A program made the translations under genes and the position numbers. Below are positions 954-16,900 of a stretch of 64,000 bases of DNA, in pieces; within the stretch, counting starts at the first letter, position 1; each line of letters starts with the position of its first letter. The stretch comes from Yamagishiella unicocca (lineage: Eukaryota > Chlorophyta > Chlorophyceae > Chlamydomonadales > Volvocaceae), in contig BDSL01000057.1 of NCBI GenBank assembly GCA_003116995.1, positions 310,001 through 374,000 of the forward strand, read 5' to 3'. The notes under the pieces are model-generated. The model was not told where the DNA came from. It saw only the letters and a list, made by a program, of their open reading frames with translations, and ran no database searches.

Positions 954-1090
954 CGTGCTAAGCTGTGTCCAGAACGAGGAGGGAGTAGGATAAGCCGAAA
1001 CACGAAAGCGTGGCGTCAGCTCAGAGTTTCGGGGCAATAGATCTGCGTGATGGAATTGATCTAATGATAACAATTGATTGACATGCAATT

Positions 1091-1273
1091 TGTTAGGAAG
1101 AAGAGTGTCGTACTAAGAATACGGCCTGTGGAGGAGATGATCCCCCAACGTTATGTCTACCGAGCAGGCACAAAGAGGACTTCCTTTTATAGTCGTTGAC
1201 TATCGAGTCGTGATGTGTACATTATGTCACGCGGAGCGCAGTACGACCATTAGGGCCTTACGCGCGCCTTACA
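1091..1273 (-). repeat. 3' LTR of the retrotransposon
   Basis: 183 bp, identical to 7303-7485 as far as I can compare by eye. On the minus strand it starts TGTAAGG and ends CCTAACA. It contains a clear TATA box (TATAAAAGG, 1191-1183) pointing towards the CAX gene, whose start codon is 230 bp downstream of the box. Confidence 0.95.
1183..1191 (-). promoter_or_regulatory. TATA box in the 3' LTR
   Basis: TATAAAAGG on the minus strand, repeated in the 5' LTR at 7403-7395. In the 5' LTR it would start the genomic RNA of the element; in this 3' copy it faces the CAX gene and could start a chimeric transcript. Function is inferred from sequence and position only. Confidence 0.6.
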
Positions 1274-1288
1274 TTCCCCCCCTTCTGA
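1274..1288 (-). other. Polypurine tract next to the 3' LTR
   Basis: On the minus strand the 15 bases before the 3' LTR read TCAGAAGGGGGGGAA, a purine run ending exactly at the LTR. This is where plus-strand DNA synthesis is primed in LTR retroelements. Confidence 0.8.
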
Positions 1289-1316: not shown

Positions 1317-4300
1317 TTAGCGAAGCTCCGGCGGGAAGTTGGTACGCGTCCAATATTCTTGGATGAGGTTGGGGCAGACACGTTCGAGGGCAGACTCGCT
1401 TTCCCAGGTGTCATGCTCAGGACCATAGTTATGGTAGCGAACCAAGTAATCAGTCAGCGTTTTGCGACCGGACCGACGTTTGCGGTGTGCGTGGAGCATT
1501 TGAGCTGAACGCAGGGGCTCAAAATTTTGCAGCTCAGTTGGCAGCGAGAGCGTAGTCGTGTTGCCTCCTTGAAAGGTTTTCAGCACGGATACATGAAATA
1601 CGTTGTGCAACTGTAAGCTGCTCGGCAGTTCGAGGCGGTATGCCACTTCACCGATCTTTTGGGTCACTTTGAATGGCCCGATCCATCGCGGCAGAAGCTT
1701 TTGCGTCGTTGCTGGCGATTTGAAGGTGATATTTTTGGTACTGAGGAGAACGAGAGCGCCGACAATGAAGGACACGTTGCGTCGCTTTTTATCAGCTTGG
1801 TCCTTCATACGCTTTTGCGCAGCCTCAAGATGTACTTTGGCTTGCTTTATGCGAGCGGTGTAGTCATCAGCAAGCTTGTTAGCGGCTGGGTATTTTGAAG
1901 GCAGAGGTATTCCTGCGTCCATCGGGACTCGCGGGTTGCGGCCGTAGACGAGGAAGAAGGGCGTGAAGCCTGTAGCATCCGCTTTGCTATTGTTGATAGC
2001 GAATTCTGCCATAGGAAGGTATGTATCCCAGTCATTTTGAGTAGGACCTACGTAGTTACGCAGTACTTCTTCGAGAACGCGGTTAACGCGCTCGGTTTGT
2101 CCGTCCGTTTGAGGATGGTAAGATGTTGATAATGCGTGTCTTAGCCGCAATCGTTTAGTGATGTTTACCAGCACTTGCGCAGTGAAACGAGGATCTCGGT
2201 CGGTGACCAGAATGCGAGGGGTGCCATGTCGGCAGAGGATATGTTGCAGCAGCATTTCTGCGAACCCCAAGGTAGTAAGAGTGTCCGTTGTGGGCACAAT
2301 GATCACCATTTTGGAGAACTTGTCAACGAAAACGCAGATGGCAGTGTGGCCGCGCGTGGTCAAGGGCAAGTGGGTGATGAAATCGCAAGTAATGACCTCC
2401 CAAGGCTCCGTGGGAACCGGAAGGGGTTGCAAAAGACCTGCGGGCTTCTGTGTGCTGGATTTGTTGCGTTGGCAGTCAGCACAGGATGTGACGTACTTGC
2501 GGACCTCCGAGTAGAGACCGGGCCACCAAAAGCGTTCTGAAATGGTTTGCAAGGTGCGAGCAAAGCCGCGGTGGCCTGCTAGTGGTGCGTCATGGTAAGC
2601 ATAGAAGATATCATTTTTGACATCAGGTGCGTCAGGTACAACAATTTTGTTGCCCTTAAAGTAAATACCTTCGTGTTTGGACACGGTGTGCCAGCTGGGG
2701 TCGGGTTCCGCAGGGGACGCCTGTTTTAGACGGTCGGCGAGGGTTGGCATGTTCGCGAACAAGGGCTCGACACCTGGAGTGAACATGGCAATTGCGGGGG
2801 CACCTGGCGGCGGGGGCGGAGGTTCCCGAAGGCAGAGTGCGTAGTCGACACAGAGGATAGCCATTGTGGCTAGCTGGGGCACAGGAGGCGCATGTATGCG
2901 ACTGATAGGGTCGGCGACATTTAGTCGACCGGGGCGATGAAGCCAGGCGTAGTGGAAACGCGTGAGGTATTCCTGCCAGCGCGCTTGCCTACGCGAAAGG
3001 TTCTTCTTTTGATCGAACCAGATAAGAGGGTTATGGTCAGTTATTAACGTGACAGATTGTTGGGCAGTTTCCAAGTAAGGGCGCCATTCTTCGAGGGCGT
3101 TTATCACTCCAAGCAGTTCTTGCTCTTCAGTAGTGTAGTTAACTTCAGCAGGGATGAACTTCTTGCTGGTGTAAGCGACAGGATGTTCGTCCTGCATAAG
3201 TACGGCGCCTGTACCATAGATACTGGCGTCGGAGATGACCTGAAAGGGCTTCTCAAAATCCGGCAATTTTAGCACGGGTGCGTTGGTTAAGGCGTGTTTT
3301 ACACCGTCGAAAGCAGTTTGGTGTTGATGGGTCCATTCAGGCAGACGCTTGAGGCCTGTGAGAGCGGTCAAGGGGGCGACGAGGGACGAGTAGCCCTGCA
3401 CGAATTTGCGGAAGTAGTTGGCGAGGCCCAAGAATCCACGTAAGCTGGAGATATCCGAGGGAGTGGTCCAGTTTTGAACGGTGGAGACTTTGCGGGGGTC
3501 GACTTTTAAGCCGTCGCGACCAACTACGTGGCCCAGGAAAGTTACTTCCTTCTGGTTGAATGAACATTTGTCCAAACGTACTTTGAATTCTCTCTCTTTG
3601 AGAGTTTTGAGCACCATTTCTAGGTGACGTTTGTGTTCTTCAGGCGTTTTGCTGTAGACCATGATATCGTCGAGGTAAACGACGACAAATTTGCCGATAA
3701 AAGGGCGGAGCATTTCGTTCATTGTCCTTTGGAACGTAGCCGGTGCGTTTGTCAGTCCGAAACACAGCACTTTGTACTGGTAGGTACCGAACGGCGTAAC
3801 GAAGCTTGTGAGAGGCACGTCCTGTTCGGAGATGCGGATTTGGTGATAGCCAGACTGTAAGTCTAGTGACGAGAAACATGTGGCGCCGGACATTTTGTCA
3901 AGCAGATCCGTGATGTTGGGCAGCGGATATCGGTTCTTAACCGTGATTTTGTTTAGGTTCCGATAATCAAGAACCATGCGCAGGGAGCCGTCTTTCTTTA
4001 GTGTGAAGAGGACCGGTGCTCCGTACGGTGATTTGGATTCCTCAATGAACCCCTTCGCGAGCAAGTCATCGATTTGCCGTTTTAGCTCATCTTGCTCTAC
4101 GGGAGATAGCCTGTAAGGCCGCGAGTAGGGTGGTTGTGACCCTTCGATTAGCGGGATTGTGTGACCGACTTCCCTGTCGGGCGGCAGCTGGTTTAGCGGC
4201 TCAAACAAGTCTTTGTAGGACTCGAGAAGGGCATTAAGCTCTGTTGGATTTACCAGTGATGGGTCCGGTTGCGCGGACTCCGTAGCAGTGGTAGCGGCTA

Positions 4301-5333
4301 GTTGAGCCATGAGGTCGCTCTGTATGAGCGCCGTGAAGCAGCGATTGCCCTTCTTCTGAAGGCGTTTAAACTGCTTTAAAGAGATGAGTGGAGTTGTGGG
4401 CGCGTTTGCGTCCAGTGCAGTTTTAGCACGGAGGGCAGCCATGGATGGCGGCAAGGACTTGTTGGTACTTAGTAGCTTGTGGGAGCGGCCGTTGCGCCGG
4501 ACCGTGCACGAGCCAGTGTTGAAGTCGAGGATCGCTTTATGCGAGGAGAGCCACTGACTACCGAGAATGAGGTCGAAGCCGTGGAGTAATCGAGGTATGA
4601 CGAGAGCGTTGAGCTCGCAGCGGAAGTCTTTGACACGACAAGTAATTGTAATTTGTCCGAGGAGTGGTACTGAGTTAGCACCATCGCCCAAAGTACACGA
4701 AGTAACGTGGCTTGCGGTAGGGCGGAGGCCGAGTTTTTCGACAAATGCTTGCGATAGCAAGACGTGGGAGGCACCTGTATCAATCAGGGCTGAGGCTCTT
4801 AGGCCGCCAATACGCATTTGCAGTATCAGGGATGAATCATCGCTATTTAGCGAGGAGCAACTTGCTTGAACGCCGCAGGGGTTTAACCAGGCTTGCATGG
4901 GAACGGGGGTGGGGCCTAAGTCAGAGTGGCCGCCGTTAGCCTCACGCACTGCGAAGAGATGAGAGCCTTGGTCAAATTCACGAAGCAGGGTCCAGTGGCG
5001 AGAGGTGAATAGTTGCTGAATGTCGGGCCGTTTAGGCACCAAAAAGACTGCACTTGTTGCGTCAGGAGCCTTGCTTTTGCAGGCTTCATAGTGTTTGAGG
5101 AACTCCGGAATTTCCGAGTACTGAGGGCTTGCCCAAACGTGGTGGTTGCCGACGTCGTGAGTGAGAAATGACGTACACGGGAGTGGCGACAGAGGGCAGA
5201 GCGATTCCGTTCCGTTACACGTAGCGTCGAATACAAATTGCCTTTTAGAAAGCTTTTGCAGCTTCAAGAAAATTGATCGATGCACACGTACCGGCTTATC
5301 CGGCCATTCAGGCAAGGAAGGAGGCTCTAGCAT
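1317..5333 (-). CDS. pol: Retrotransposon Pol polyprotein (PR-RT-RH-IN-chromodomain)
   Basis: 1338 residues counted from the first in-frame ATG (5333). The frame stays open upstream, without another stop, to the UAG that ends gag at 5393-5391, so Pol is probably made as a Gag-Pol fusion. Domains in order: aspartic protease with DTGASH near residue 185; reverse transcriptase with YLDD at 553; RNase H beginning around VISDAS at 699; integrase with an HHCC zinc region (H914 to CADC 951-954) and catalytic D984, D1045 and E1081, giving the canonical D-x35-E spacing; then a C-terminal chromodomain at about 1280-1332 (LVRYHNYGPEHDTWE). Chromodomains of this group direct integration to particular chromatin. 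All catalytic motifs seen are intact, so the copy may be active. Confidence 0.95.
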   Translation of the reverse strand: MLEPPSLPEWPDKPVRVHRSIFLKLQKLSKRQFVFDATCNGTESLCPLSPLPCTSFLTHDVGNHHVWASPQYSEIPEFLKHYEACKSKAPDATSAVFLVPKRPDIQQLFTSRHWTLLREFDQGSHLFAVREANGGHSDLGPTPVPMQAWLNPCGVQASCSSLNSDDSSLILQMRIGGLRASALIDTGASHVLLSQAFVEKLGLRPTASHVTSCTLGDGANSVPLLGQITITCRVKDFRCELNALVIPRLLHGFDLILGSQWLSSHKAILDFNTGSCTVRRNGRSHKLLSTNKSLPPSMAALRAKTALDANAPTTPLISLKQFKRLQKKGNRCFTALIQSDLMAQLAATTATESAQPDPSLVNPTELNALLESYKDLFEPLNQLPPDREVGHTIPLIEGSQPPYSRPYRLSPVEQDELKRQIDDLLAKGFIEESKSPYGAPVLFTLKKDGSLRMVLDYRNLNKITVKNRYPLPNITDLLDKMSGATCFSSLDLQSGYHQIRISEQDVPLTSFVTPFGTYQYKVLCFGLTNAPATFQRTMNEMLRPFIGKFVVVYLDDIMVYSKTPEEHKRHLEMVLKTLKEREFKVRLDKCSFNQKEVTFLGHVVGRDGLKVDPRKVSTVQNWTTPSDISSLRGFLGLANYFRKFVQGYSSLVAPLTALTGLKRLPEWTHQHQTAFDGVKHALTNAPVLKLPDFEKPFQVISDASIYGTGAVLMQDEHPVAYTSKKFIPAEVNYTTEEQELLGVINALEEWRPYLETAQQSVTLITDHNPLIWFDQKKNLSRRQARWQEYLTRFHYAWLHRPGRLNVADPISRIHAPPVPQLATMAILCVDYALCLREPPPPPPGAPAIAMFTPGVEPLFANMPTLADRLKQASPAEPDPSWHTVSKHEGIYFKGNKIVVPDAPDVKNDIFYAYHDAPLAGHRGFARTLQTISERFWWPGLYSEVRKYVTSCADCQRNKSSTQKPAGLLQPLPVPTEPWEVITCDFITHLPLTTRGHTAICVFVDKFSKMVIIVPTTDTLTTLGFAEMLLQHILCRHGTPRILVTDRDPRFTAQVLVNITKRLRLRHALSTSYHPQTDGQTERVNRVLEEVLRNYVGPTQNDWDTYLPMAEFAINNSKADATGFTPFFLVYGRNPRVPMDAGIPLPSKYPAANKLADDYTARIKQAKVHLEAAQKRMKDQADKKRRNVSFIVGALVLLSTKNITFKSPATTQKLLPRWIGPFKVTQKIGEVAYRLELPSSLQLHNVFHVSVLKTFQGGNTTTLSLPTELQNFEPLRSAQMLHAHRKRRSGRKTLTDYLVRYHNYGPEHDTWESESALERVCPNLIQEYWTRTNFPPELR

Positions 5334-5393
5334 CTCAGTGTCCTGGGATAACCCATGCTGTGAACCCGTGATGCCAGCATGGGCAACCCCCTA
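5327..5393 (-). promoter_or_regulatory. Candidate stop-codon readthrough signal between gag and pol
   Basis: UAG (5393-5391) ends gag; pol continues in the same frame. After a 7-nt spacer (GGGGUUG) the RNA can form a perfect 9-bp stem: CCCAUGCUG (5383-5375) with CAGCAUGGG (5360-5352), closing a 14-nt loop. Five loop bases (GCAUC, 5374-5370) could also pair with GAUGC at 5334-5330, 17 nt past the stem, giving an H-type pseudoknot. The arrangement resembles the murine leukaemia virus-type readthrough signal (UAG, short spacer, pseudoknot). Stem and frame are seen directly; the function is inferred. Confidence 0.6.
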
Positions 5394-6383
5394 GTTAGCC
5401 GCTGCGCCGTCGGAACCGCTCGGACCGTCCCTGCGCTGCCGCTTGGACTCCTGACAGCGGTGGCCCTTCCCGAAAGGAGCGCCGCAGTGGTAACATAGGC
5501 CAGCCTTGGCCAAATTTTCACGCCTAATGTCCTCGCGCTCCTTCTCGCGCTCGGAGGTTCGGCGGTAAGACCGGCCGTTGCCGCGGTCTTCGCCATTGCG
5601 GCCGTTGCCGCGGTCGCCGCCATTCCGGCCATTGCCGCGGTCGCCGCCATTCCGGCGGCGGTCGCGGTTGCCATTGCCGCGATTTGCAGCCTGCTTGGGA
5701 GGGGCGGGGGCGGTTCCTTTGAGGAGGCCAAAGCGGACGGTCTTTTTGCCGATGAGTGAGCGCGATTCCTGGCCGTGGGCGTAAGTAAGCAGGGCGTCAA
5801 AAGCGGCCCAAGGGTTGCCGTTGGCATCCGAAGCACACGAGCGCTGCAATTGAGCAAGCATTCCGTTTAGGAACCAGGCGCACAAGTCAACTTGGGAAAT
5901 GTCGGGATCATCGCGAGTTAGTTCCCGGAAGCGCTGCGCGTAATCGCCAATGGATTCGTGAGGCTTCTGATGGTGCTCGCCAGAGTGCAAACGTTGGCGA
6001 ACCTCTTGGGGCGTGCCGCGGCGAACGTCCCCGTAAAGGAGAATGAAATCCGCGCGCATGGTTGCTACTGAGAGGGGCGGAGCACCTAGCACTGCGTGCC
6101 GTTCGCACAAGCCGCTGTACCATTTAGCAGCCGGACCGCCCACGTAATATCGCATGCTCTCGATGGGGTCGCAATTGTTGGCCCTCAGGTATCGGATAGT
6201 GGTGTCAAACCAAATGTCGGGGTCCGAGATCTGGTTGCTGCTGCGCCCTAAGAAAATAGGCGGCTGTCGCAGCGCACGCGAATGGGTATTGCTGGTCCCA
6301 GTGGTTATGGCTGCGTGTGCCGCAGGAGTGCCCGTGGGAGTAGCACCCGGATAAGCGCTAGTTGCGCCCGTTCCCAGACTCAC
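5391..6383 (-). CDS. gag: Retrotransposon Gag (capsid and zinc knuckle)
   Basis: The frame reads about 330 residues and ends at UAG 5393-5391. It holds a capsid-like Retrotrans_gag region (for example IWFDTTIRYLRANN and YAQRFRELTRDDPDIS). A basic Arg/Gly/Asn-rich stretch made of short repeats (about 5580-5690) follows, then a zinc knuckle CYHCGAPFGKGHRC (C-x2-C-x7-H-x-C spacing, seen in several plant chromovirus Gags). At 6383 the codon is GTG, not ATG, and no ATG is seen in this frame in the upstream stretch I read (to about 6540), where it overlaps ORF1. Expression therefore seems to need a +1 shift from ORF1, splicing or a non-AUG start. In-frame with pol apart from the UAG. Confidence 0.85.
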   Translation of the reverse strand: MSLGTGATSAYPGATPTGTPAAHAAITTGTSNTHSRALRQPPIFLGRSSNQISDPDIWFDTTIRYLRANNCDPIESMRYYVGGPAAKWYSGLCERHAVLGAPPLSVATMRADFILLYGDVRRGTPQEVRQRLHSGEHHQKPHESIGDYAQRFRELTRDDPDISQVDLCAWFLNGMLAQLQRSCASDANGNPWAAFDALLTYAHGQESRSLIGKKTVRFGLLKGTAPAPPKQAANRGNGNRDRRRNGGDRGNGRNGGDRGNGRNGEDRGNGRSYRRTSEREKEREDIRRENLAKAGLCYHCGAPFGKGHRCQESKRQRRDGPSGSDGAAAN

Positions 6384-7197
6384 GGTGTTGATAGGTGACG
6401 CCTGCGCAGGAGCCGGCCGGAGCCGCCGGTGCAGGTACTGCAGGGGCTGGCGTGGGCGCGGGTCCTGGTTGCATGAACGGCGCCGCGGCGTGCTCCGGTA
6501 CGGGCAGCGCTGGCGGGACCGCAGGCGAGGTAACGGCCGCGAGTGCCGCTTGGACAGCTGCTTGGATCATAGCCTGCAGCTTGGTCTGCTCGTCCATGGG
6601 CACGTTGGCCGGTGGCGGCGGCACTTGGGCCGGCGGCGGCGGCGGCACGTTCTCCGTTGCCGGCTCATCTGCGTTAGGCGGCGGGGGTCTGGGTGAGTCG
6701 ATCGCCCGTGCGGTAAAAACCTGGGGCTCCGAGTCGGCATTTTGCGGGGCGTTTGTCAGCGTGCGCAGGGCGTCAAAATCGGCCTGCGTTTGCTGGAGCA
6801 CTTTAAGCGATGGTATCTTAGTACCTGCGTCCAGCAGCTCGCTGAAGTCCATATTCTCTATGGAGTCCAGGTCGACAGCGTCGTTGACGTCGCCCGGGAA
6901 TGCGCCCGCAGCCTGTAGGCGTTGGAAGAGGATAATCCGTTTTAGGCGGAGGATGGTGGAATAATTTAATCCCGGGAGATGGTCGTGGTTCCCTTCGACC
7001 AAGCGGAGGTAGAATGTGACATCTACGTTCGTCAGGGCGGATTTTCCGGCCGAGTAGGCTAGCTCGAGTAGCAAATCAGTGCTAGGCATAGCAAGGAAGG
7101 CATTGTACATGCTACGGTATGAGCGTCTTAGCGCTTTGGGCGGCGGAAGGGTCGCCATGTTGCGTACCGTCGTATCGCAGTCCATTTTGGCCGACAT
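6358..7197 (-). CDS. Retrotransposon ORF1, N-terminal Gag-like protein
   Basis: 279 residues from ATG 7197, the first ORF after the primer binding site; it ends at TAG 6360-6358. The first ~110 residues look globular and helical (for example FLAMPSTDLLLELAYSAG). The C-terminal half is proline/alanine-rich and disordered, with PPPP runs. The next ORF (gag) lies in the +1 frame and overlaps the end of this one. I recognise no catalytic motif. It may be the matrix-like N-terminal part of one Gag polyprotein joined to the downstream frame by frameshifting, or a separate protein; the sequence does not decide. Confidence 0.7.
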   Translation of the reverse strand: MSAKMDCDTTVRNMATLPPPKALRRSYRSMYNAFLAMPSTDLLLELAYSAGKSALTNVDVTFYLRLVEGNHDHLPGLNYSTILRLKRIILFQRLQAAGAFPGDVNDAVDLDSIENMDFSELLDAGTKIPSLKVLQQTQADFDALRTLTNAPQNADSEPQVFTARAIDSPRPPPPNADEPATENVPPPPPAQVPPPPANVPMDEQTKLQAMIQAAVQAALAAVTSPAVPPALPVPEHAAAPFMQPGPAPTPAPAVPAPAAPAGSCAGVTYQHRESGNGRN

Positions 7198-7277: not shown

Positions 7278-7300
7278 GATCGAACCTGTCTCAGATGCCA
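7278..7300 (-). other. Primer binding site, initiator-Met tRNA-like
   Basis: Two bases after the 5' LTR the minus strand reads TGGCATCTGAGACAGGTTCG, continuing ATC. This is close to the complement of the 3' end of eukaryotic initiator methionine tRNA (plant form TGGTATCAGAGCCAGGTTTC) with several mismatches and one deletion. The TGG needed to pair with the tRNA CCA end is present. The exact primer depends on the host tRNA sequence, which I cannot check. Confidence 0.7.
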
Positions 7301-7302
7301 GT

Positions 7303-7485
7303 TGTTAGGAAGAAGAGTGTCGTACTAAGAATACGGCCTGTGGAGGAGATGATCCCCCAACGTTATGTCTACCGAGCAGGCACAAAGAGGACTTCCTTTT
7401 ATAGTCGTTGACTATCGAGTCGTGATGTGTACATTATGTCACGCGGAGCGCAGTACGACCATTAGGGCCTTACGCGCGCCTTACA
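7303..7485 (-). repeat. 5' LTR of the retrotransposon
   Basis: 183 bp, same sequence as 1091-1273; TATA box at 7403-7395. Followed by the target duplication CAATT at 7486-7490. Confidence 0.95.
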
Positions 7486-7490
7486 CAATT

Positions 7491-10959: not shown

Positions 10960-13900
10960 ATGCCTGGATCAAGTAATATTAAATGTTTTGGCAGCGTCCG
11001 TGCACGCGACGGTGTGACTCCAGTTCCTCTAGCCGGGTACACAGCTCGCATCCTTAGACACTGCCTACATTATGGTCGTAGGTCAGCTTCCCTTCGACAA
11101 TTGCCGACCCGGGCTGCGGACAGATCCACAACACGCCCGTCGGCGACGGGGTCGCCGAACGATGTCGGCGACCTGCTGGACTTTTTGCAAAACGATGCAG
11201 CCCCTTACGAGGTGGCAGTGCCACCGTACACGCAGGTGGCACGCGCTCGCCCTAATAAACGAGCCAAAAGGCCGCAGCTGTCCAGGGTCGTCTCTTCGGG
11301 TAGCCGCGCCGGTGACTCTGGCCAGCAAGCCATTCCCCAGGAGACCGCTGCCAAGCTGCACAAAAGCAATAAGAAACTTCAGCGAAAGGGCACGCAAATC
11401 CTGAGCGAGAGCAGCCGCGATGCCGCCCCCGCGGCAACAGTAGGATCCGGTTCCACCGCAGCAACAAGCTTTGCAAGCGCTCCAGGCGACTTGGCAGCCT
11501 CTTTGACCGGAAGCGCTGCGGCATCCACCACGCCAGCCTCAGTACCCGTCAGAGGGCGCGCCCAGCAGCAGGCCCAGCACCAGACCAACCATACCACCAC
11601 AGAGCCCGCAGCCGCCCCCTCACCGACCGCCGCAGCCGCCACCACAGCGGTCCCCACAACCCATATCGTGCCCTCCGCCGCGTCTAGCGACGATGCTAAC
11701 ACGTCGCCCGCTGCATCCGTAGCAGCCGCCGCCGCCGCGTCACTAGACATTCCACTCCGGCCGCCGGCGACGGCACACGAACCCCAGCAACCCGCCAACG
11801 TGATGGTGAAAGCGCAAACAACACCGCAGTCCAGTGAGGACGACCTGCCGCCAGCACAAGCGCCTTGGACTGGGGCTTTAGCCCCACCAGCTGACGACGG
11901 CGTTAACACCGATGTCGGAGCTCGGACCACATCACCCTTGAATGCTGCGCCGCGCAGGCAGGTACATGTGCCTCATCTGCAACTGGGCACCAAGGAACTG
12001 GAACCGCCATCAGCACCACCACCGATGTTTGGGTTGCCAGTCGGTCCGCCGCATCAACTTACGCAATCTTTTGGGGTACGGCTGGCGGCAGATGGCTCCG
12101 GAGCCGGAGTGCCGACGGGTCCGGTAGCCGAGTCGGCGGACTCGGCTCCTGCTGTGGAGCAGCAGCCGCAGCAGCCGGCATCTGCAGCTGTGCCAGGGAA
12201 GTCAATCGGAGGCGATGTGCCAGGGAAGTCAATCGGAGGCGATGTTGGGGCAGCCGCTGGCGCTCAGCGGCCGGCAGGAGCCAGCAGCATCTCGGAGAGG
12301 CGCGCCAGAGGTGAGGGAGCGGGCAGCAGCGACCGGCGAGGCAGCGGCGCCTTCGGCGACAGTAGCAGCAGCGCTTCCGGCAGCAGCAGCGCCGCCGTGC
12401 CCAGCGGCTTTGCTCCAGCCGGCGGCATGGACGGGGCCGCTTCCTCACCAGCAGCGGCTCGTCAGGTGGCGGTCCGGCGCGCGGCGGTGACGTGGCAGTG
12501 GGGCCGGCACCTGGGGGCCCCGGGGCCCACGCATAGGCCTCCTGCCCAACAGTCCCCCCCCACTGCGGCTGCGGCGATCGGCTCTGAAACCATCAGTGGT
12601 TTGTTGGTTGCCGCAGCCCCAGCTGCAGCACAACCCAGCCCGCAAATCCTCGCGACACCGCCCCCACAGCCCGCCTCACAGCCCGCGCCGCCGCAGCTGA
12701 CAACACAGCCGCAGGCTTTTGCCGCAGCAGATGCAGCTGTGGCGGCTGCAGCGGTGCAGCTTGAAGCGGCGCCTGCGGCAACCGCCGTGCGTCTTCCGGC
12801 GGCGCTGCTGCAGCTTTCGCTCCAGGGGCGGATCTCCCGACTGGAGGCGGCGGCCGCAGCGCTCCGGGGGGCCCACGTGGGGCCAGCCAGGGGAGCGGCC
12901 CAGCCCCAGGGCCCCTCCCTGGAGGAGCGCCAGCGTCAGGCAGCAGCCGGACCGCCGGCGCGGCACCCGCTGCCGCACAACGCCTCTGCGGCCGCCTCTA
13001 GTGCTACCATCGGACCTGCTACTGTGGAGCGCACCAGTCCCGCTGGCTCGAGGCCTGCAGGCCATGCCGCAGCAGCCGTTGCGATGGATGCTTTAGCACG
13101 TGTCACCGGGGGGCTCGATTTGGCGGACATTGAGGGCCTGGCCGCGGCAGGAGCCAGGGGTGAGAGCGCGGACGCCCACGCACCTACCGCGGCAGTTGCC
13201 GTACATGGGGGCCCTGGTTTTGACGAGCCGGTGGAACGGAGCGGCGCTCATCCGACTGCTCCAGGGGGGGCGCCTCGCGCTCCCAGGGAGGTTGTCGCCG
13301 CGCAGGAGCTGTTCCGCAGCCTCGCCCGCTACCGACCCACGGGTCGCGAGGACGGCGCCCTGCTGCTGGCACCCCACGCCCGCTACGAGGGCGCCTCCTA
13401 CCAGGCGGCAGCCCTGGCCGCTGCCGACCGCCCGCAGCTGGTCTTGGAGCCCCTGGGCCTGCAGGACCTGTCGTGCATCGCCGCCGCCTACGCAGCCGCC
13501 GGGCACATACACGCCCCTTTCCTAACCGCCCTTTCCTCCACCTGCTACGACAAAATGACGCCCCCGTCACCGCCGTCGCCACCGCCGCCGAGTGACTCCG
13601 CCACTAATCCTGCTTCCAGCCGACCCGCGGGGCAGACGGTTGCGCCATGGCCGCTAGCGTCGGAATCTCCCGCCGCAGCGGCGCGGGCGGCGCCGGCGGC
13701 GGCGCCGGCGGCGCCACTGACCTTTCATACGGCCTGTGTGCTGCTGATGGCGCTGGCGCGGCTGGGCCACCGCGATGCCCGCCTGGTGGCGGCGCTGGGG
13801 CGCTGGCTGGCGCGTGAGCTGCGCTCCGGGACCGTGACGCCGCGATCCAAGCGTAAGGGCACCTGGCTGGCGGCGGCGCTGTGGTCGTACGCCACCCTGG

Positions 13901-16900
13901 AGCGTACGGCAGCCGGTGGCGGCGGCGCCGACGTGGCGGCGGCGGGCGCGCTGCTGTTCGCGGAGGCCTCTGAGGCGCTGCGTGTCGCACCCGGCTGGCT
14001 GTTCCTGTTCGACTGCAGGGAGGCGCTGTGGGCGTTGTGGGCCTTACGAGTCGCCGCTGTGTCGTACGAATCCGACGGAGATGGGAAGTCGTCACCGCAG
14101 TTGACAGCGGCGGCCGGCGGCGCCGTCGCCGCCAGGCGCGGGGACGGGGCGGCGGCGGTCATGGCGGCCGCAGCAGCGGCTGTGAGCTACACGTCGGATC
14201 CCTTGGTGGAGCTCAAATTGGCGGAGCGGGCTGCTTGCCAGGTGTGGTTTCGGAGCCGGATGGTGGCGGGAACGGGCAGGAGCGATCATGGGGCCGTTTC
14301 TGCATGCATGCAAGGCTGATGTTGGAGGACGACCCCGAATTAAACCTAGCCACCCGCACTCCTGGCGTTTCCTCAGCTCGCCGAGCCCCTTCCCTGCCTC
14401 CCCAGCTGGACCAGCTGGACCCGGGACAACTGGCGGAGGCGTACGCGGTGGTGGCGGAGACGGGTTTCGGAGCCGACCGCGACGTCCTGAAGGCGCTGCG
14501 CCGCTGTACGCTGGCCCGCGCCGTGGCCCTGCGGCCGCAACCGCTGGCGGTCATGGTGGCCTCGTTGGCGGTAATGCAGGTGCGCGAGGCGGGGCTGCGG
14601 GGGAGGGGCAGCACGTGAGCCCGTGGAAACCCCCGGGAAGGGGTCCGGGGGGGCCGTAAAAATCGTTTACATGACAGGGACAGGATAGTTGGAGGGGGCC
14701 GGGGGGATGGGCGGAAGAGGGGCTGGGGGAAGGATCTGGCGTGTTCATCTATACCGCCCCTCGCAAACCCACCAAGGGCCCGGGCCTGTTGGATTGGTGC
14801 GTTCCGGTGCCTTGCCTCGCCCCGTGTGGGTGTACGACGTCCCAGCCGGCGAATCCCGCTGGGCTGATCAGCTCCCGTCCCGCCTACCGTCTCCACCTAG
14901 CATCGTTCCTTAATCATTTTCCTTGTAACTGTGTGTCGTACCACGGATTTCCTGTCTTCCCCTTGCTGCCTACCTTTTCCTCCCCCCCCCGCGGACCCAC
15001 CGAGTAACCCGTCCGTATTTGTAACCCCCCGCGGACCCCGCAGGTCCAGGACGTGGCATGGCTCTCCTCCCTCGCCGCAGCCTGCCGCAACCAGATGATT
15101 AACATGAAGCCCGAGCAGGTCCGGACTGCGAAGTTCTACCCGTTGCCTCGATTCCGCCACATCCCAGGCTGCGGGGAAGCCAATTTCGCGGGCTTAATCC
15201 ACGACGTGCCGTACACTTGCCCCCACACCCCATTCAGGTCGTCGTCGTACTGCACGGCTTCGCCGTGGCGCTGCGCTTCTACTACCCGCCCCTCTTCAAA
15301 GCCGCCGCCGTCATGTGCACCCTCCCTGGCTTCGACCGGCTGGGCCTTATGGCGGCGGGGGACGTGGTGCGCCTGGCGGCGGCGTTCGCGGCGGCGGGGC
15401 ACTACGATGGCATACTGCTGCGGCGTGCGGTGGGTGCGGCAGCGAGCGGGATGAAGGGATACGGCGAGGAGGCGGGGGTCTGGGGGGGTGGTAGGCGGTT
15501 GAGTCGACATACGCGAATCGACACTGAAGCAATTACCGCGAAGGGGGCGGTTGAGTCGACATACGCGAATCGACACTGAAGCAATTACCGCGAAGGGCAT
15601 GGGCGTTGCCGGTGCCCCTGAATAAAAAGAGAGAGTGCGCAGGCCCCTGGTCATTAGCACCCTTGTGCGGCCCCCGTCCCCTTTTCCTTGTCGATTTTCC
15701 CGTTCAGTGCCGACCCACGGGTCTCCTCTCATAACCCCGTCCCCGCAGGCCGACCGCATCCTGGCCCTAGGCGCGGCAGCCACCGCCTGGCAGCGAGCCA
15801 GCGTCCTCCTGTCGGCTGCGCAGCTGTCCTACCGGAGCAACCCGCTGCTCCGCGCCGTGGTTTCGGAGGCATTCGCCATGACGGTGGTGCAGGTGCCCGG
15901 CGCAGCGTCTACCGCTACGTCTACTACAGCCCCGGCGGCTGTTGCGGCGGCAGCGGGCCGAGTGGCGGCGGCGGCCGCGGGGGTCCTGCCGCCTGCACTG
16001 GTGGTGAGTGTGGCGGCGGCCTGCGGGCAGCTGCAGTTCCGGCCGCGGGGGCTGCTGCCGGCGATGTACGCCGCCCGGGACGCGGAGTGGCCGCGGCTGG
16101 GGATGGCTCAGCGAGCCACCCTATGCTGGGCGCTGCTGGTGCTCACGGGTGGGTTGGGCCGGGGCGGCGCGGGAGCGCTCAAGGTGAACGCCAGGGGCCG
16201 TGGGGGTAGCTCTGCAGCCGGCGGCAGCAGCGGCAGCAGCGGCGGCAGCGGCAGCAGCGGCAGCAGCGGCAGCAGCGGCAGCAGCGGCAGCAGCGGCAGC
16301 AGCGGCAGCAGCGGCAGCCATGGCGTTGGTGGCGGTATCATCAATGGCGCGGCCGGCCCAGCTCGGTTGACGGGAGGGCCCGACGCCGCTGGTGCCGGGT
16401 ACCGATTGCGGCGTGGCAAGCGCATTGAGCTCCAACATGTTGAGGAAAAGCAGCGAAAACAGGAAGAACAAGAGCAGCAGCAACAACAAGAGCAGCAGCA
16501 GCAGCAACGCCTCCGGCGCTGGGCGGCGCAGCGCCAGCAGCAGCAGCAGGAGCAGCTGGGCGCGGTGTTGGTGTCGTACTTGCAGGCCCTGGCCGCAACC
16601 GGCTCTCGACAGTGGCCCTCCTCCGAGCACCACGCCCAGCTGCTGGCAGCCTGCGCCGTGCTGGCATGGCGGCCAGGGCCCGGCGCCTCCCACGCAGGTG
16701 GCCTGCCGACTGCGCCGCCGAGCAGCCCGCCGAGCAGTGCCGGCGAGGCGGCACCGCCCAATAACGGCGTCACCGGGACAAGGAACGAGCAAGGAGCTGG
16801 CGGGGGCGACGGCGCTGCTGGCGGCACCGCTGGCGGCATCGCTGGCGACACAGCTGGCGACACAGCTGCTGATGTGCACGGTGGCAGCGGCGCCGCCGGT

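What the first reader, a model, noticed from the sequence alone, without database searches (positions are those of the whole stretch)
5327..5393. Gag-pol boundary looks like a stop-codon readthrough cassette
Gag and pol share one frame, separated only by UAG. Seven bases after it comes a perfect 9-bp stem with a 14-nt loop, and five loop bases can pair 17 nt downstream to form a pseudoknot. MLV-type retroviruses use a UAG, a spacer of about 8 nt and a pseudoknot to make Gag-Pol by readthrough. As I know the group, most chromoviruses use one continuous frame or frameshifting, so a readthrough design in an algal chromovirus would be unusual. The stem starts where a readthrough element should, which argues against a simple nonsense mutation.
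Basis: partly seen in the sequence, partly recalled or inferred. Interest (0 to 1): 0.82.

Follow-up and report, generated by a model that had tools for sequence, protein, structure and literature searches.

The report
Gag-Pol stop-readthrough signal in algal retrotransposons
In a family of jumping genes of green algae, the gene for the shell protein is joined to the gene for the copying enzymes through a stop signal followed by an RNA hairpin that is conserved in several relatives, which most likely lets a few ribosomes read on so that a little of the joined protein is made.

Summary
It is not a stray nonsense mutation. All 46 junctions read in the host genome, from 10 Ty3-type families, have a stop: UAG in 8 families, UGA in 2, never UAA. 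In-frame stops recur in relatives from other organisms. In an RT tree they share one clade (100/100 support); outside it, nine labelled rows are fused or -1 and one distant row has a stop. The stem has support of its own: in 7 distinct sequences its six-pair core pairs in 42 of 42 cells, with two-sided changes in 4 of 6 pairs (0 of 500 shuffles). Families B2 and B3, fetched after the stem test was fixed, kept UAG-G, spacer and stem, though weakly by shuffling alone. The pseudoknot is not supported; families C, D, F and G lack this stem. Best reading: type III-like programmed readthrough (UAG-G plus compact stem-loop) making Gag-Pol. UGA readthrough is described for fungal chromoviruses; ten searches of an open-access library listed no algal report. 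Readthrough was not measured.

The parts
5391..5393 (-). in-frame UAG at the end of Gag
   Evidence: UAG in 12 of 12 places of the family that span the junction
5384..5390 (-). 7-nt spacer GGGGUUG (G right after UAG)
   Evidence: the same seven bases stand in family B, GGUGUUG in L054
5375..5383 (-). 5' arm of the stem, CCCAUGCUG
5361..5374 (-). 14-nt loop
5352..5360 (-). 3' arm of the stem, CAGCAUGGG
5330..5334 (-).
   Evidence: p = 0.31 against shuffles; none of the other eight junctions tested does better
1317..5390 (-). Pol frame (1357 codons after the UAG, then UAA): protease, RT, RNase H, integrase, chromodomain
5391..6383 (-). C-terminal part of the Gag frame up to the UAG, with a CCHC-like motif seen by eye
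   Evidence: no Pfam hit in this copy's pieces, a weak Retrotrans_gag match (E 0.0036, below cut-off) in copy L011
6358..7197 (-). N-terminal Gag frame; this copy has a frame break near 6.4 kb that 7 of 9 copies compared lack
7303..7485 (-). 5' LTR, 183 bp, TG...CA
   Evidence: identical to the other LTR
1091..1273 (-). 3' LTR, 183 bp
7486..7490 (.). target-site duplication AATTG (minus-strand reading), upstream side
1086..1090 (.). target-site duplication AATTG (minus-strand reading), downstream side
1274..1286 (-). polypurine tract AGAAGGGGGGGAA
   Evidence: sequence read directly
7283..7300 (-). putative primer-binding site two bases after the LTR; primer tRNA not identified
   Evidence: sequence read directly

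Best explanation
This is a programmed stop-codon readthrough signal of a chromodomain Ty3/gypsy (chromovirus) LTR retrotransposon of a volvocine green alga. Most ribosomes stop at UAG and give Gag. A minority, helped by the leaky UAG-G context and by a compact stem-loop that begins about 7 nt downstream, decode the UAG as an amino acid and go on in the same frame to make Gag-Pol, which the element's protease would then cut. Shown here: one shared frame, a stop kept in every junction that could be read in the clade, and a stem kept by compensating changes in several families. Inferred: that readthrough occurs, its rate, that the stem stimulates it, the amino acid put in, and the Gag to Gag-Pol ratio.
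For: A stop at the Gag|Pol border with both sides in one frame in 10 of 10 host families: UAG in A, B, B2, B3, C, D, E, H; UGA in F, G (in B2 and B3 only about 370 bases per place were read); 46 of 46 places have the stop (A 12, B 10, B2 7, B3 2, C 4, D 2, E 2, F 1, G 3, H 3). Relatives from other organisms: L043, L054 UAG and L044, L060 UGA, both frames readable; L045 UAG with only 47 upstream codons held; L056 UAG with pol broken. The clade has 100/100 support; outside it, of 10 labelled rows 5 are fused, 4 are -1 and 1 (L061) has a stop. Among 16 junctions (B2 and B3 counted in by their 73% and 68% identity to B) 12 are UAG, 4 UGA, 0 UAA; G follows UAG in 10 of 12. Stem: individual shuffle p 0.003 (A), 0.02 (B), 0.012 (H), 0.0045 (L054); the 14 non-A junctions combined 0.001 by shuffles and 0.0003 by position. 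Covariation on a sequence-only alignment: 42 of 42 cells paired, 4 of 6 pairs changed on both sides (3 of 500 shuffles reach this count; 0 of 500 reach the pairing or the covariation score), slid registers at most 50% paired. A trail B to B3 to B2 at one pair: U-A, U-G, C-G. No frame-keeping splice pair by a loose pattern in A or B. UAG ends the Pol frame in families B, D, E and G, so it is not a general sense codon.
Against: No readthrough, RNA or protein was measured. Families C, D, F and G show no stem at that place (p 0.97, 0.72, 0.41, 0.64), nor do L045 (0.45) and L056 (0.62); E, L043, L044 and L060 are individually weak (0.06 to 0.17), and L043, L044 and L060 are close kin, so the combined p is somewhat too good. 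B2 and B3, fetched later, are 0.085 and 0.086, one B3 copy 0.21. The covariation set holds 7 distinct sequences of 5 families, leaves out the families without the stem, and its structure came from family A. Tca2 looked just as convincing, yet its junction was not enough for readthrough in yeast (PMC2194720).
Confidence: 0.85

Rival explanations
1. A nonsense mutation in a once continuous gag-pol frame, spread by recent transposition of one master copy; the stem is chance.
For: The 12 places of family A that span the junction are 95-100% identical, so they alone are few independent events.
Against: The stop recurs in 10 host families and in relatives elsewhere; host families share only about 36-54% of matched Pol residues with A, the stop switches between UAG and UGA, and the stem covaries.
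Confidence: 0.02
2. Readthrough occurs but rests on stop identity and the next bases alone; the stem has some other role (packaging, dimerisation, RNA stability).
For: Families C, D, F and G have the in-frame stop without a stem at that place; UAG-G in 10 of 12 UAG junctions; fission-yeast Tj1/Tosmo elements are described by UGA-CU context (PMC10085805).
Against: In the families that have it the stem starts 7-8 nt after the stop, close to where known readthrough structures start (about 8 nt; PMC3542737).
Confidence: 0.2
3. Pol is started anew at an AUG after the Gag stop (termination-reinitiation), so no Gag-Pol fusion is made.
For: Family A has an in-frame AUG 57 nt after the stop.
Against: The first in-frame AUG lies anywhere from +12 to +384 in the 15 junctions; in B it is at +384, inside the stretch that is homologous to A's Pol (match from query residue 11).
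Confidence: 0.05
4. An intron or RNA edit removes the stop from a share of transcripts (as in Ogre elements for the intron).
For: An intron between the two ORFs is spliced from a subset of Ogre transcripts (PMC6317226). By a loose pattern, frame-keeping site pairs around the stop exist in G, H, L044, L054 and L061.
Against: Frames are open right up to both sides of the stop; by the same pattern no such pair was found in the other 13 of 18 junctions, A, B, B2 and B3 among them (under 200 nt upstream held for B2, B3 and L045). Editing was not tested.
Confidence: 0.05

Closest known systems
Type III viral readthrough signals (UAG-G/UAG-GGR plus 3' structure; e.g. gammaretroviruses, epsilonretroviruses, tombusviruses, rice stripe necrosis benyvirus)
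   Same: UAG followed by G (GGG in A and B) and an RNA structure starting about 7-8 nt downstream; Gag-Pol at a gag|pol border as in the retroviruses. Definitions from PMC3542737, passages read.
   Different: A chromovirus of an alga; compact stem-loop with no supported pseudoknot; some clade members use UGA or lack the stem.
MLV-type gammaretroviral gag-pol readthrough pseudoknot
   Same: UAG, spacer of 7 nt (MLV 8), stem of similar place (PMC4178896 and PMC3542737, passages read).
   Different: Second stem of a pseudoknot not better than chance; no sequence kinship tested or implied.
Fission-yeast chromoviruses Tj1, Tosmo1-3, Tcry1
   Same: Chromovirus with an in-frame stop between Gag and Pol; in Tj1 the stop is needed for transposition (PMC4600332, PMC10085805; passages read).
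   Different: UGA in GAA-UGA-CU context, strictly conserved among those elements, no stem described in the passages read; Tf1/sushi group of fungi.
Tca2 (Ty1/copia, Candida albicans) and SIRE1
   Same: reading frames split by an in-frame stop; Tca2 has a purine-rich 8-nt spacer and a possible pseudoknot (PMC2194720, abstract and Background read).
   Different: Other superfamily (recalled); UGA in Tca2; Tca2's junction alone did not direct readthrough in yeast.
Chlamyvir clade of green-algal chromoviruses
   Same: Chromodomain Ty3/gypsy elements of green algae (PMC6317226, PMC3350952; passages and one section read).
   Different: Kinship to named Chlamyvir elements not tested here; the passages read do not give Chlamyvir's ORF layout, which the paper puts in a figure and additional files that I did not see.

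Membership tests
Type III readthrough signal | UAG stop codon in frame with the downstream ORF | tested here: met
Type III readthrough signal | 3'-adjacent G or purine-rich octanucleotide | tested here: met
   G in A and in 10 of 12 UAG junctions; the octanucleotide of A has 5 of 8 purines
Type III readthrough signal | RNA structure just downstream | tested here: met
   covarying stem in A, B, B2, B3, L054; not found in C, D, F, G
Type III readthrough signal | measured readthrough above background | not testable with these tools
   needs a reporter
MLV-type readthrough pseudoknot | second stem between hairpin loop and downstream sequence | tested here: not met
   p 0.31 in A, 0.31 to 1.0 in the nine junctions tested
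Chromovirus (Ty3/gypsy with chromodomain) | protease, RT, RNase H, integrase in this order, then chromodomain | tested here: met
   window element. Chromodomain also in B, E, F and L043; not in the stretches scanned of C, G, L044 and L054, some of them cut short; D, H, B2 and B3 not scanned
LTR retrotransposon, recent insertion | identical LTRs and target-site duplication | tested here: met
   183-bp LTRs identical, 5-bp TSD
Chlamyvir clade | RT/INT grouping with reference Chlamyvir elements | not tested
   no reference sequences were fetched; only a 16-row clade that holds the eight host families placed
Tj1-type fission-yeast readthrough | GAA-UGA-CU context | tested here: not met
   AAC-UAG-GGG in A; no GAA-UGA-CU among the 18 junctions listed

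The most novel reading that the evidence does not exclude
Structure-stimulated stop-codon readthrough is the ancestral way of making Gag-Pol in a whole clade of green-algal chromoviruses. It arose apart from the gammaretroviral and fission-yeast cases, has been kept while UAG and UGA replaced one another and while the stem's sequence turned over almost completely, and has been reduced to context-only readthrough in some branches.
Probability: 0.55. Interest if true: 0.65.

Novelty: new variant of a known kind. Interest (0 to 1): 0.56.

Why it matters
Gag-Pol readthrough with a structured 3' signal is well established for gammaretroviruses, but for LTR retrotransposons the evidence is thinner, and in Tca2 the junction failed in a reporter. 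Here ten families in one genome, plus relatives elsewhere, give natural variation: with and without the stem, UAG against UGA. That makes it directly testable whether the stem drives readthrough, and it would be a first case of this design in algal chromoviruses as far as the searches made here show.

Tried and rejected
Pseudoknot: tested on nine junctions, none better than shuffles. Plain folding energy: 70-nt windows after the stop are only mildly stable against other windows (14 of 15 lie in the lower half; the one low value, 0.016, is the outlying L061); not used as evidence. Rfam: one chance-level match in 12 kb, elsewhere. Gag protein search: 7995 candidates scored, none at E 0.001, perhaps because low-complexity words dominated. 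IMG/VR scans: none, one distant fused element L042, none. The list of AUGs in all frames printed has an offset error and is not used; only its in-frame AUG column is. L088 turned out not to hold a Pol start and was dropped. A-family pieces that do not span the junction (L018, L019, L020, L023, C74, both C115 pieces) were not counted. A thirteenth A place (C49:662067-662192) aligns over 66 of the 120 bases compared; it keeps UAG and the spacer but has three changes in the 5' arm and no 3' arm in the match, and is not in the 12. Of the host copies counted, some are damaged: B copy L030 has another sequence upstream of the stop, B copy L027 a shortened Gag, and the G copy on C60 (L033/L072) has the UGA plus a further in-frame UAG in Pol. 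Gag in the upstream frames was checked with Pfam late: supported, mostly below the curated cut-off, in A, B, C, D, E, F, H, and above it in L044, L056, L060; no hit in G, L043 (171 codons) and L054. Outside the clade a Gag domain stands in the fused frames of L047, L049, L050 and upstream in L064; it is weak or only a knuckle in L042 and L062 and absent in L053 and L067, whose labels rest on ORF layout. L046, L048, L052, L055, L057, L058, L059, L063, L065 and L066 have no junction labelled. L068 was not used.

Full report
What is there. The element lies on the minus strand of the window from 7485 to 1091. It has two identical 183-bp LTRs (7303-7485 and 1091-1273), a 5-bp target-site duplication AATTG, and a polypurine tract just before the 3' LTR. 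Pol (1357 codons after the stop, ending in UAA) carries protease, RT, RNase H, integrase and a chromodomain, so it is a chromovirus. Identical LTRs suggest a recent insertion.

The junction. Gag and Pol are open in one frame. Between them stand UAG (5393..5391), the spacer GGGGUUG, CCCAUGCUG, a 14-nt loop and CAGCAUGGG. In a test of stems that start 5-9 nt after the stop with loops of 3-25 nt, run on copy L011, this stem is reached by 0.3% of 2000 dinucleotide shuffles and by 0.14% of 4281 other positions. The window's own copy and the copy on C245 have a frame break further up in gag; the other 7 of 9 copies compared keep the Gag frame open.

Other copies. A 301-base DNA search found 16 matches in the host genome. 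Twelve span the whole query, and all 12 keep UAG; both arms are unchanged in 11, and in the twelfth (C42, 95% identical) one C-G pair is U-G. A protein search with Pol gave 48 matches, with a gap between near-identical copies and families of about 36-54% identity over the matched parts (35 of 458 candidates were scored, so the list is a lower bound). In the seven further families whose junction could be read the frame is shared and a stop stands at the border: B, C, D, E, H with UAG, F and G with UGA. Pfam supports Gag upstream of the stop in A-F and H, mostly below the curated cut-offs, and gives nothing for G.

Later families. After the stem test had been fixed, a search with family B (38 matches, 35 of 870 candidates scored) gave two new families, B2 (73% identical to B) and B3 (68%). 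Of 14 short stretches fetched, 13 held the junction: 4 more of B, 7 of B2, 2 of B3, all with UAG-G; the fourteenth (L088) was not a Pol start. B2 and B3 have the 7-nt spacer and a stem in the same register, though by shuffling alone these are weak (p 0.085, 0.086 and 0.21). In total 46 of 46 junctions read in the host genome have a stop, in 10 families, none UAA.

Other organisms. A scan of prokaryotic genome assemblies returned 26 contigs with related Pol. I take them for mis-filed eukaryotic DNA (inference from content). Of these, L043 and L054 (UAG) and L044 and L060 (UGA) have both frames readable across the stop; L045 (UAG) holds only 47 codons upstream; in L056 (UAG) Pol is broken. An RT tree of 34 rows puts all of these, with the eight host families placed (A-H), in one clade of 16 rows with 100/100 support; two of the 16 (L052, L057) have no junction. 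Outside it, 10 rows bear a label: five fused (L042, L047, L049, L050, L051; the RT rows of the last two are identical), four with Pol in the -1 frame (L053, L062, L064, L067; slippery sites not examined) and the remote L061 with UAG. A Gag domain was found in L047, L049, L050 and L064, weakly in L042 and L062, not in L053 and L067. So an in-frame stop marks the clade as far as it could be read, while its identity switches between UAG and UGA within sub-groups. With B2 and B3 counted in, 16 junctions give 12 UAG, 4 UGA, 0 UAA, and G next to UAG in 10 of 12 (a binomial of 0.0005 at 33% G, which ignores kinship).

The stem across families. Besides A, stems start at the same place in B (8 bp, loop 16), L054 (8 bp, loop 15), H (8 bp, spacer 8, loop 18) and, weaker, in E, L043, L060 and L044 (6 bp). 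Fisher combination over the 14 non-A junctions gives 0.001 (shuffles) and 0.0003 (positions); it takes them as independent, which L043, L044 and L060 are not. A MAFFT alignment by sequence alone of eight junction stretches from A, B, B2, B3 and L054 puts the arms in register. In its seven distinct rows the six-pair core pairs in 42 of 42 cells, four of six pairs change on both sides (3 of 500 shuffles reach that count), no shuffle of 500 reaches the observed pairing or covariation score, and registers slid by 1-3 columns pair at most 50%. With eight pairs 89.1% of cells pair. At one pair B has U-A, B3 U-G, B2 C-G, a natural compensating trail. In a hand comparison of the outer 8 bp of A, B, L054 and H, seven of eight positions have two-sided changes, and arms swapped between families pair at 4.6 of 8 on average against 8 of 8 within (stems were chosen for pairing, so only the contrast counts).

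Against. Four host families (C, D, F, G), L045 and L056 have no such stem there. No tool here measures readthrough. Tca2 is a warning: a stop, a purine-rich spacer and a possible pseudoknot, but no readthrough from the junction in yeast (PMC2194720, abstract and Background read).

Rivals. A mere nonsense mutation is excluded by the spread of the stop over families and organisms. Reinitiation is unlikely: the first in-frame AUG ranges from +12 to +384. Splicing across the stop lacks a frame-keeping site pair, by a loose pattern, in 13 of 18 junctions, A, B, B2 and B3 among them, but has one in G, H, L044, L054 and L061; only RNA would settle it. Reassignment of UAG is unlikely because UAG also ends Pol in families B, D, E and G. 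Readthrough by context alone, with the stem doing something else, remains possible and is the main rival.

What is known. Three classes of viral readthrough signals are described; type III is UAG with a 3' G or purine-rich octanucleotide and a 3' structure, with UAG-GGR in Tombusviridae, UAG-G plus pseudoknot in gammaretroviruses, and UAG-GGG plus compact stem-loop in a benyvirus (PMC3542737, passages read). Families A and B (UAG-GGG plus compact stem-loop) fit that class by anatomy. [quoted passage not shown]), which suits the UAG/UGA switching here. In chromoviruses, an in-frame UGA is known in Tosmo1-3, Tcry1 and Tj1 of fission yeasts; other Tf1/sushi elements mostly use -1 frameshifting and the plant cluster usually a single ORF (PMC10085805, passages read), and Tj1 needs its stop to transpose (PMC4600332, passages read). 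Gao et al. 2003 is not held. Ten text searches listed no paper that, by title, abstract start or the passages read of seven papers, reports readthrough in an algal chromovirus; most listed papers were not opened, one search listed 15 of 29, and the library is open-access papers only. The layout of Chlamyvir elements in PMC6317226 sits in a figure and additional files that I did not see.

Verdict. It works like a type III readthrough signal; membership in the sense of measured readthrough is untested.

Noticed in passing
L061:3-6632: A distant Ty3-like element (contig filed as a cyanobacterium) has a 1162-codon ORF with a C-5 DNA methylase match and an aspartyl-protease match below cut-off, then UAG-CAA-UCA, which fits the tobacco-mosaic type I readthrough motif CARYYA, then an in-frame RT ORF ending in a PHD finger.
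   Followed up: partly
window 6358-6400, minus strand: This copy (and the one on C245) has a frame break in gag; 7 of 9 copies compared keep the frame open.
   Followed up: partly
window 10960-14319, plus strand: Long ORF similar to Raa3-like RAP-domain proteins of volvocine algae, nearest Pleodorina starrii and Volvox carteri.
   Followed up: partly
L043-L067: Contigs of prokaryotic assemblies, many of them metagenome bins, carry Ty3-type elements, some of them relatives of the window's element; apparent contamination that can serve as a source of relatives.
   Followed up: partly
G000:C49:662067-662633: Two copies of the junction in opposite directions within 600 bases, one of them matching only as far as the stem.
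   Followed up: no
L022 (family C), Pol residues 22-80 of the stretch scanned: The N-terminal stretch of Pol gives a Pfam hit to DNA N-6-adenine-methyltransferase (Dam, E 2.2e-6, just under the cut-off); the same family is precomputed for several environmental relatives.
   Followed up: no
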